Origin: Aquisalimonas sp. 2447
GTDB taxonomy: Bacteria > Pseudomonadota > Gammaproteobacteria > Nitrococcales > Aquisalimonadaceae
Reading direction: 5' to 3'
Length of the DNA: 64,000 nt
Assembly (NCBI RefSeq): GCF_012044895.1
Contig: NZ_CP050695.1
Location: 1,394,501 to 1,458,500, forward strand
Shown: piece by piece, positions 31,932-33,891 of the stretch
Position numbering within the stretch: the first letter of the stretch is position 1
How the letters are laid out: each line of letters begins with the position of its first letter
Notes under the pieces: generated by a model
The model's database searches: none
Seen by the model: the letters and a program-made list of their open reading frames with translations, nothing else
Told to the model about the DNA's origin: nothing
Program-made: the position numbers and the translations under genes

Positions 31932-32039
31932 ACCCCGGGAGCACACCCCCACCGCCTGCCACGCCCCCGTAGGAGATTGCGCATCAACGCTGTTGGTGCG
32001 CTGTCGCGCAGCAAACATGGTGCAAGATAGGCGGGCGCA

Positions 32040-32195
32040 CGGAGAGCAGAGGCCAGACGCCGCACTGGTGTGCATGCACCCGCGTAGGAGAGTGGCCCGC
32101 ACGGCATCGGCGTGGAGTCGTTGAAGGCACGGCACTGGCCGTGACCTCGTATGAGAGAGTGAGCCCTACCGCCGCCGTGTCTCCCCGTACGCCCT
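32040..32195 (+). ncRNA. candidate IS110 bridge RNA
   Basis: In the noncoding left end, CGTAGGAG (32083-32090) equals the top strand left of the insertion point. A CACG/CGTG hairpin (32100-32114) follows, then GTCGTT (32117-32122), which can pair with AGCGAC right of the insertion point with one G-U. A 6-bp hairpin (CACGGC/GCCGTG, 32128-32143) leads to ATGAGAG (32151-32157), equal to the right end of the IS (33603-33609). The order target guide, hairpin, target guide, donor guide is that of IS621-type bridge RNAs. The right donor guide is not clear (GTCT at 32179-32182 possible). RNA ends are guesses. Confidence 0.6.
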
Positions 32196-32220
32196 TGTGA
32201 TCATCATGTGAGGAACGGAC

Positions 32221-33554
32221 ATGGCAGGCAAGAGGCAGAAGCGGCGGTTGGAGGTGGTGCATCCGGATTGTGCCGGTATCGATGTCGGGGGTCACGAGCA
32301 TTGGGTGGCGGTGGATCCCGGGCGTTGCGAGGTCTCGGTGCGGTGTTTCAGCGGTTTCACCGACGATCTGCAGGCGCTGGCCGACTGGCTGGAGTCGCTG
32401 GGGATCACCCAGGTGGCGATGGAGGCGACGGGGTGTACTGGATTGCGCCCTTTGAGGTGCTTGATGCACGGGGCTTTGAGGTTCTGCTGGTCAACTCCCG
32501 GGCCACGCGGCAGGTCTCGGGGCGCAAGTCCGATGTGCTCGACTGTCAGTGGATCTGGCAGTTGATGAGCCACGGTTTGTTGAGCGGTGCCTTTCGCCCG
32601 GGTGATGCGGTGTGCACGCTGCGTGCGTTCGTGCGCCAGCGCAGTCGCCGGATCCAGGCCCAGTCGTGGTGTCTGAACCACATGCACAAGGCGCTGGCGC
32701 AGATGAACGTGCATCTGGGCCATGTCGTCAGCGACCTCAAGGGCAAGACGGCGATGCGCATCCTGCGGGCGATTGTCGCCGGTGAGCGGGATCCGTGGCA
32801 GCTCGCCACGCTACGCGATCGGCGGCTGCGCGCCGACGAGGCGACGGTCGCGCGCAGCCTGCATGGCAACTGGCGCGTCGAGCATCTCTTTGCCCTCGAG
32901 CAGGCACTGGCGCACTTTGATTTTCTCGAGCAGCAGATCGGCGCCTGTGATCGGGCGATCCTCTCGGCACTCGAGGCACTGCCCGTGCGTGCCTGTGCCC
33001 CGACTGAACTCGCCACCCCCTCGCGCAGCGCCCACCGCAGCGCGGCCGAGCAGCGCCGGCTCCAACAGGCACTCCTCCAGGTCATGGGGGTCGATCTCAG
33101 CGCCATCCCATCGCTGGGTGTCGACACCGTGCTGGTGATCGCCGGAGAAATCGGCCCCGACCTCTCGCGCTTTCCCTCCCAGGCGCACTTCTGCTCCTGG
33201 CTCGGGCTCGCGCCACCGACCCGGATCTCGGGTGGCAAAGCCCTCAGCGGGCCGGGGACGAAGGTCAACAACATCGCCGCCCAGGCACTCCGCCAAGCCG
33301 CCTCGAACGCGCGATCGAGTCGCAGCTTCATCGGCGCCGCCCATCGCGCAAGACTGACACGCATGGACACCGCCAAAGCGATCAAGGCCACCGCTCACCA
33401 GCTCGCCCGGCTGATCTACGCCATGCTCACCCGTGGCCAGCCCTACGTCGAGAAAGGCATCGAGGCCTTCGAGGCCACACGCCATGATCGCCAACTGCGG
33501 GCACTCCAGCGCAAGGCCCGCAAACTCGGCCTCGATCTGGTGCCAGCAGCATGA
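32221..33554 (+). pseudogene. IS110-family transposase (DEDD recombinase), frameshifted
   Basis: Bridge-RNA-guided recombinase family. The N-terminal RuvC-like part has the first Asp in AGIDVGGHEHWV, Glu in AMEATG, and two Asp in SDVLDCQW. The C-terminal transposase_20 part has IPSLGVDTVLVIAGEIGP and the LGLAPPTRISGGK segment with the presumed catalytic Ser. The frame breaks at 32430-32433: a run of four G where five would restore METGVYWI-type continuity. Start ATG at 32221 follows GAGG. Both halves are otherwise intact, about 444 residues in total. A sequencing slip or programmed shift cannot be excluded. Confidence 0.85.
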
Positions 33555-33678
33555 CTCAATATGAAACCGCCCCTGTCAAAACAACGACCTGGCAGATGTT
33601 TGATGAGAGCGACGTCAGTCGCGACCTGCCAGGGTACAGGAACAGGGCCCAGGCTCTTTACGGTGGCTTCGATCCGCG

Positions 33679-33790: not shown

Positions 33791-33891
33791 GGCGGCATTG
33801 CAAATCGCCACCGGCCAGGGCTGGCCCGGCTTCCTGCGCCCTGGCAGGTCGCGACTGACGTCGCTCCTACGGGGGGCGTGGCGGGGTTTCC

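What the first reader, a model, noticed from the sequence alone, without database searches (positions are those of the whole stretch)
32040..32195. IS110 left end carries guide segments matching its own target and donor ends
The insertion site can be read from the split REP, so guides can be tested. CGTAGGAG at 32083-32090 equals the left flank (31968-31975). After a small hairpin, GTCGTT (32117-32122) can pair with AGCGAC at the right junction (33608-33613), one G-U. After a second hairpin, ATGAGAG (32151-32157) equals the IS right end (33603-33609). Order and strand sense agree with what is known of IS621-type bridge RNAs (left target guide same sense, right target guide complementary). Only the right donor guide is unclear.
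Basis: partly seen in the sequence, partly recalled or inferred. Interest (0 to 1): 0.85.

Follow-up and report, generated by a model that had tools for sequence, protein, structure and literature searches.

The report
REP-targeting IS110 with reordered bridge RNA
A jumping gene in this bacterium carries a guide RNA whose short segments match the DNA it inserts into and its own end; in relatives the guide and the DNA change together, and the guide parts seem to be in the opposite order from the best-studied example, IS621.

Summary
This is an IS110-family insertion sequence with five copies in its genome, four of them in REP-like GTAGGAG|CGRC sites. Its left end encodes a predicted two-loop bridge RNA, supported by compensatory changes in 16 sequences. 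The left target guide occurs exactly in upstream DNA in 21 of 23 relatives, against 10 of 476 swapped pairings. The left donor guide occurs downstream in 23 of 23, against 3 of 450. GTCGTT as right target guide fails (z -0.1 to 0.65). A scan of all windows instead picks CGCCGC at 32058-32063, on the 5' side of the target loop (z 4.5-4.9 over 22 elements; 5.9 over 31); in close relatives alone this is weak. The loop order is then stem, right guide, hairpin, left guide. That is the reverse of IS621 and ISEc21 and the order reported for IS1111 elements, although the RNA lies upstream of the transposase. The right donor guide is unresolved. Relatives include transposase-less bridge-RNA elements, one sitting exactly in the right end of a full element that its guide matches. 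Bridge RNAs are known; the permuted order and guided hitchhikers may be new.

The parts
31968..31975 (+). left target half (CGTAGGAG), ending in the AG core 31974-31975
   Evidence: read directly; junctions of five copies compared
31976..33609 (+). IS110-family element, left end to right end; AG core at both ends
   Evidence: an AG direct repeat is also reported for ISPpu9 (PMC8450116, section 16)
32044..32194 (+). predicted bridge RNA core (match to covariance model R1, 154 bits)
   Evidence: converted to window coordinates; the window family is one of the 16 sequences in the model, so the match is by construction
32051..32054 (+). target-loop stem, 5' strand (pairs with 32094-32097)
   Evidence: 3 of 4 pairs with compensatory changes
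32058..32063 (+). proposed right target guide CGCCGC (may extend to 32056); pairs with GCGGCG of the target (core G plus CGGCG)
   Evidence: top window of the scan over the full set and z 5.9 with added elements; 6 of 6 pairs with the CGGC sites, one mismatch at the window's own CGAC site
32067..32080 (+). target-loop hairpin (GGTG 32067-32070 with CACC 32077-32080)
   Evidence: mostly invariant, no compensatory change
32083..32090 (+). left target guide CGTAGGAG
32094..32097 (+). target-loop stem, 3' strand
32100..32112 (+). donor-loop stem, 5' strand (CACGGC 32100-32105, GGCG 32109-32112)
   Evidence: outer part: 4 of 6 pairs with compensatory changes; inner part: none
32117..32122 (+).
32126..32146 (+). 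donor-loop inner hairpin
   Evidence: 3 of 6 pairs with compensatory changes
32150..32157 (+). left donor guide TATGAGAG (ATGAGAG equals the right end)
32170..32179 (+). donor-loop stem, 3' strand
32221..33554 (+). IS110 transposase gene with a one-base frameshift in this copy; intact copies exist elsewhere in the genome (L002, L005)
   Evidence: intact copy matches NF033542 IS110 family RNA-guided transposase, PF01548 and PF02371
33603..33609 (+). right end / left donor sequence ATGAGAG ending in core AG
33610..33616 (+). right target half CGACGTC
33840..33888 (-). inverted, uninterrupted copy of the same REP-like sequence (approximate limits)
   Evidence: CGTAGGAGCGAC at 33860-33871 on the minus strand

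Best explanation
The left end of this IS110-family element encodes a bridge RNA that names both the insertion site and the element's own end. In the target loop the RNA runs stem, right target guide (CGCCGC), hairpin, left target guide (CGTAGGAG), stem. In the donor loop it runs stem, unassigned 5' segment, hairpin, left donor guide (TATGAGAG), stem. Left guides are the same sense as the top strand and would pair with the bottom strand; the right target guide is complementary to the top strand. The left guides end with the AG core, and the right target guide ends on its G. Shown by comparison: covariation of left target and left donor guides (strong) and of the right target guide (moderate) with the DNA, and the covarying two-loop fold. 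Inferred from IS621: transcription of the RNA, binding to the recombinase, a circular donor, and strand exchange at the core. Compared with IS621 and ISEc21, the order of guides within the target loop is reversed, and the left donor guide is on the opposite side of its loop from that in IS621.
For: Left target guide: top window in 25 elements (z 10.4, next 4.0); exact 7-mer in 23 of 25; present in 260 nt upstream in 21 of 23, against 10 of 476 for swapped guides. Left donor guide: z 8.9, next 3.6; 24 of 25; 23 of 23 against 3 of 450. Right target guide: best of 138-140 windows at lengths 5, 6 and 7 (z 4.9, 4.6, 4.5), 0 of 20000 permutations at length 6, 22 elements; top in all 8 settings tried in the full set (23 elements); z 5.9 over 31 with nine further plasmid elements. 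Fold: 24 hand-drawn pairs in 16 sequences, 97.4% of cells paired, 10 pairs with double changes, 0 of 500 shuffles as high; RNAalifold finds the same two loops. Natural retargeting: guides read GTAGGAG, GTGGGAG, GAGGGAG, ATGAAAG, ATGACAG, ATGTTAG, TAAAAAA and others, each with its own site.
Against: Folded alone, the sequence is no more stable than shuffles (z 0.81 and -0.50). No Rfam family matches at gathering threshold. The right target guide is uneven: 10 of 22 elements score 3 or less out of 6. In close relatives alone it is z 2.1 (133 of 5000 permutations, 13 elements) and the top window in only 2 of 8 settings; distant elements alone give z 2.5 (65 of 5000, 9 elements). The permutations do not correct for shared ancestry. 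Copy L004 sits where the right half does not match, and L032 lacks the left target match (2 of 7 at the aligned position, best 5 of 7 upstream). The right donor guide has no clean signal. The hand-drawn structure was made from the same sequences, which favours it. No expression data exist here for this organism.
Confidence: 0.77

Rival explanations
1. An ordinary IS621-type bridge RNA: left target guide, small hairpin, GTCGTT as right target guide, then the donor loop.
For: GTCGTT can pair with AGCGAC of the window's own site with one G-U. The small hairpin can form in nearly all 16 sequences (98.4% of cells). IS621 and ISEc21 have this order.
Against: GTCGTT does not covary with right targets (z -0.10, -0.12 and 0.65). 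The small hairpin has 1 compensatory cell, while the donor stem that uses the same bases has 4 of 6 outer pairs with double changes. The left guides lie 3' of their hairpins.
Confidence: 0.08
2. Only the two left guides act as guides; the right half of the target is read by the recombinase or hardly at all, and the right target signal is inherited background.
For: Left guides score far higher than the right one. Copy L004 has a left match with one G-U but no right match. Close-only and distant-only subsets are weak, and in the close set the window is top in only 2 of 8 settings.
Against: The same window is first in all settings in the full set, positive in both subsets, and improves with nine added elements. 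Perfect pairs exist in unrelated hosts (own CGCCGC, L085 TTCGCC).
Confidence: 0.14
3. The matches are relics of insertion or REP-derived sequence inside the element, with no guide role.
For: The guide equals the REP left half in the REP-targeting elements.
Against: The same position matches non-REP sites such as ATGACAG, ATGTTAG and TAAAAAA in relatives, and swapped guides rarely match.
Confidence: 0.01

Closest known systems
IS621 bridge RNA and other IS110-group elements (PMC11208160, PMC11208158; passages read)
   Same: RNA in the left end upstream of the recombinase, two loops for target and donor, left guides same sense as the top strand and right target guide complementary, two-base core shared by target and donor, REP target
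   Different: Core AG, not CT; right target guide on the 5' side and left guides on the 3' side of their loops, the reverse of the IS621 order; right donor guide not found. ISPpu10 is drawn in Extended Data Fig. 10 of PMC11208160; the library holds only its legend, so its order could not be compared
IS1111-family seekRNAs (ISEc11, ISPa11, ISKpn4; PMC11187229, passages read)
   Different: In IS1111 the RNA usually lies downstream of the transposase and sub-terminal inverted repeats are present; here it lies upstream, and no conserved long inverted repeat was seen by eye (not computed)
ISPpu9 and ISPpu10 of Pseudomonas putida (PMC1525189, passages; PMC8450116, passages and section 16)
   Same: IS110 family, insertion at one fixed point of a REP, AG direct repeat for ISPpu9; ISPpu9 has separate ssr9 copies without transposase, like the transposase-less relatives found here, and its authors already suggested that such segments might move on their own
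   Different: Ssr9 and Asr9 were interpreted as regulators of transposase expression, not as guides. I did not fetch ISPpu9 or ISPpu10, so the relation is by description only

Membership tests
IS110 family (DEDD recombinase) | recombinase with DEDD_Tnp_IS110 and Transposase_20 domains | tested here: met
   PF01548 77.3 bits, PF02371 43.8 bits, NF033542 263.7 bits against cut-off 140, on the intact copy; no PDB sequence match at E 0.01; catalytic residues not checked one by one
IS110 family (DEDD recombinase) | inserts at a fixed sequence with shared two-base core | tested here: met
   five copies, AG at both ends; 4 of 5 in GTAGGAG|CGRC
IS110 group as against IS1111 | long non-coding end with guide RNA upstream of the transposase | tested here: met
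IS110 group as against IS1111 | bottom-strand match (left target guide) 5' of the top-strand match, as in IS621 and ISEc21 | tested here: not met
   best right target guide is 5' of the left target guide; moderate evidence
Bridge RNA | two-loop RNA with target and donor guides that covary with DNA | tested here: met
   three of four guides and covarying fold
Bridge RNA | right donor guide | tested here: inconclusive
   no clean peak
Bridge RNA | RNA is made, binds the recombinase and directs recombination | not testable with these tools
   no expression or biochemical data
IS1111 group | guide RNA downstream of the transposase | tested here: not met
   RNA is upstream
IS1111 group | sub-terminal inverted repeats of 7 or more bp | not tested
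   looked at by eye only

The most novel reading that the evidence does not exclude
This subgroup, with members in gamma-, beta- and alphaproteobacteria, has bridge RNAs whose loops are permuted relative to IS621, so guide order and RNA location are independent traits. It has also given rise to transposase-less bridge-RNA elements (about 250-360 bp) that act as guided hitchhikers. In some, the left target guide is set to a right terminus of full elements (ATAGGAG in L008b; ATGAGAG in L080, L101 and L102), so that they could dock in tandem behind a partner and borrow its recombinase. The ssr9 segments of ISPpu9, so far read as an RNA sponge, may be such elements.
Probability: 0.5. Interest if true: 0.72.

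Novelty: new variant of a known kind. Interest (0 to 1): 0.52.

Why it matters
Guide order has been reported as a difference between IS1111 and IS110 elements (the latter from one member, ISEc21, in PMC11187229) and taken as a hint that their mechanics differ. An element with IS110 placement and IS1111 order would separate the two traits and bears on how the two groups arose. It also corrects which bases would have to be changed to retarget this subgroup. Transposase-less bridge-RNA elements would be natural cases of a guide RNA and its end sequences working in trans.

Tried and rejected
Rejected: GTCGTT as right target guide; the CACG/CGTG hairpin, which is nearly invariant and loses to the donor stem; single-sequence fold stability as evidence (searches gave none); Rfam (nothing). 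A right donor guide was searched for at lengths 4-8 with and without the core base; several conserved windows reach z 3-4 and none stands out, so none is claimed. Abundance of TAGGAGCGNC in the genome is not evidence of REP enrichment: 69 sites against 135 for the reversed control pattern. A scan of viral contigs with a profile gave one relative, with a DNA pattern none. No match at E 1e-60 in 58 other genomes of the kinship search.

Rows dropped. L081: its left end appears cut off by other DNA. L055: near duplicate of L009, left out of counts. L066 and L008b: no transposase, left out. Right targets of L084 and L139: another copy sits there. L008a and L048: no right target available. L133 and L134: my pattern found no guides in them, so they were not used; 9 of the 12 loci were used. 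The guide of L138 was read by eye after the pattern failed. The boundaries of L020, L021, L048 and the plasmid elements were placed with the help of the guide match, which is circular; one search does not use those boundaries, though one upstream window was only 65 nt and two downstream windows only 266 and 287 nt.

Full report
What is there. The window holds an IS110-family element at 31976-33609. It occurs five times in the 3.97 Mb genome. The left flank ends in GTAGGAG in four copies and GCAGGAG in L004; the right end is TTTGATGAGAG in all five; the right flank starts CGAC in the window, CGGC in L002, L003 and L005, and GCAG in L004. An AG is common to both ends. The left ends are identical apart from one base near the terminus of L005. 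The transposase gene carries a one-base frameshift in the window copy, L003 and L004, while L002 and L005 are intact. The intact protein passes the NCBIfam model for IS110 family RNA-guided transposase and both Pfam domains. No match at E 1e-60 was found in 58 other genomes of the kinship search, so the element was probably acquired from outside (inference).

Checking the strings. Whether they are guides cannot be settled from one element, so relatives with other insertion sites were compared. Twenty-six elements were tabulated.

Left guides. In an alignment of the left-end RNA regions, each window was scored against the left flank and against permuted flanks. One window stands alone for the left target: seven bases shortly after CCCG, ending in the core (z 10.4, next 4.0, 25 elements). 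One stands alone for the right end of the element: seven bases ending in the core, followed by AGTGA in the window (z 8.9, next 3.6). Exact seven-base matches occur in 23 of 25 and 24 of 25. Because some boundaries had been placed with the guide in view, a control asked only whether the guide occurs anywhere in the 260 nt upstream or in 450 nt downstream (shorter where contigs end): 21 of 23 and 23 of 23, against 10 of 476 and 3 of 450 for guides of other elements. The misses are L021 (6 of 7) and L032 (5 of 7), both for the left target.

Right target guide. The scan of 138-140 windows puts first, at all three lengths, the bases just 5' of the CANTGG hairpin, which in the window are CGCCGC at 32058-32063 (z 4.9, 4.6 and 4.5; 0 of 20000 permutations at length 6; 22 elements). 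Full pairing is seen for the window family with GCGGCG and for L085, TTCGCC with GGCGAA; L007 scores 5.5 of 6, and L019, L060 and L087 5 of 6. Ten of 22 score 3 or less. In the close relatives alone the window is top in only 2 of 8 settings with z 2.1; the distant ones alone give z 2.5. Nine added plasmid elements raise the whole to z 5.9 over 31, but eight of the nine share one target type that was already in the first set. Permutation does not remove shared ancestry. I take this guide as likely, not proven.

Fold. RNAalifold on 16 sequences gives two stem-loops, the first enclosing right target guide, hairpin and left target guide, the second enclosing a 5' segment, a hairpin and the left donor guide (16 of 38 pairs with a change on both sides). 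A structure drawn by hand from the same sequences has 24 pairs, 97.4% of cells paired, and 10 pairs with changes on both sides, against a shuffled mean of 3.8 and at most 2 for slid versions. Single-sequence folding gives no support by itself, and no Rfam family matches.

How it probably works. By analogy with IS621 (PMC11208160, PMC11208158; passages), the recombinase would bind this RNA, use the donor loop to hold the joined ends of the excised circle and the target loop to open a REP, and exchange strands at the AG core. Only the pairing logic is supported here. The guide order in the target loop is reversed relative to IS621 and to ISEc21, and equals the order that PMC11187229 reports for IS1111 elements (passages), whose RNA usually lies on the other side of the transposase. 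I found no statement of this combination in the listings of searches, in a library without figures and with few subscription papers; Extended Data Fig. 10 of PMC11208160 may already show it for ISPpu10. That some IS110 elements, including ISPpu9 and ISPpu10, insert at a fixed point of REPs is long known (PMC1525189, passages).

Hitchhikers. A covariance model built from the alignment finds only the five copies in the own genome and matches in 12 of 398 genomes of the genus of a Pseudomonas genome. Of ten loci examined, eight had no tblastn match to the transposase, though L099 and L109 end early at contig ends. L008b (361 bp) is inserted exactly in the right end of the full element L008a: its left target guide is ATAGGAG, the terminus of L008a, and its left donor guide ATGGGAG matches its own right end. 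A second kind (346-348 bp) occurs in L080, L101 and L102 at unrelated sites that all end in ATGAGAG, matching its guide AATGAGAG at 8, 7 and 8 of 8 bases; its right end ATAGAAG matches its donor guide. L105, a diverged copy, fits less well. ATGAGAG is also the terminus of many full elements, but none of these three was seen to sit in one. The G471 copies (253 and 264 bp in the two measured, L070 and L074) instead match a REP-like left half. PMC8450116 (section 16, passages) describes ssr9 segments behind ISPpu9 and orphan copies outside REPs, and its authors already suggest that such segments may move; what is added here is a guide match. A search for Ssr9 or bridge RNA lists papers holding both terms first, and the first ones listed hold only one.

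Verdict. The core claim, a bridge RNA with left target and left donor guides, is right; the right target guide was misplaced, and the better candidate implies a permuted architecture.

Noticed in passing
L008 3881-4241: A transposase-less element of 361 bp with its own bridge RNA sits exactly in the right end of the full element L008a; its left target guide equals that end.
   Followed up: partly
L080, L101, L102, L105: A family of transposase-less bridge-RNA elements of about 346-348 bp in Pseudomonas, one on a Pseudomonas aeruginosa plasmid; L080, L101 and L102 sit at sites ending in ATGAGAG, which is also the terminus of many full elements.
   Followed up: partly
   Followed up: partly
L086, L087, L088, L132, L135-L140, L142, L143: A branch whose guide reads TAAAAAA or similar inserts at an A-run that looks like the boundary between the two reading frames of IS3-family elements; this IS3 reading rests on the look of the flanks and on recall.
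   Followed up: no
L083, L084, L133, L134, L139: Several distant relatives sit in or next to what looks like the right end of another IS110 element, some as tandem insertions.
   Followed up: no
window 32221-33554; L003; L004: Three of five copies share the same one-base frameshift in the transposase and are otherwise identical over the element to intact L002, as if defective copies had moved with help in trans.
   Followed up: no
L004 junction: One copy sits at a site whose left half needs one G-U with the guide and whose right half does not match, suggesting the left guide dominates.
   Followed up: no
L010, L011, L019, L054: Some Pseudomonas relatives carry a terminator-like inverted repeat between left end and bridge RNA, possibly of an antisense RNA like Asr9 (judged by eye).
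   Followed up: no
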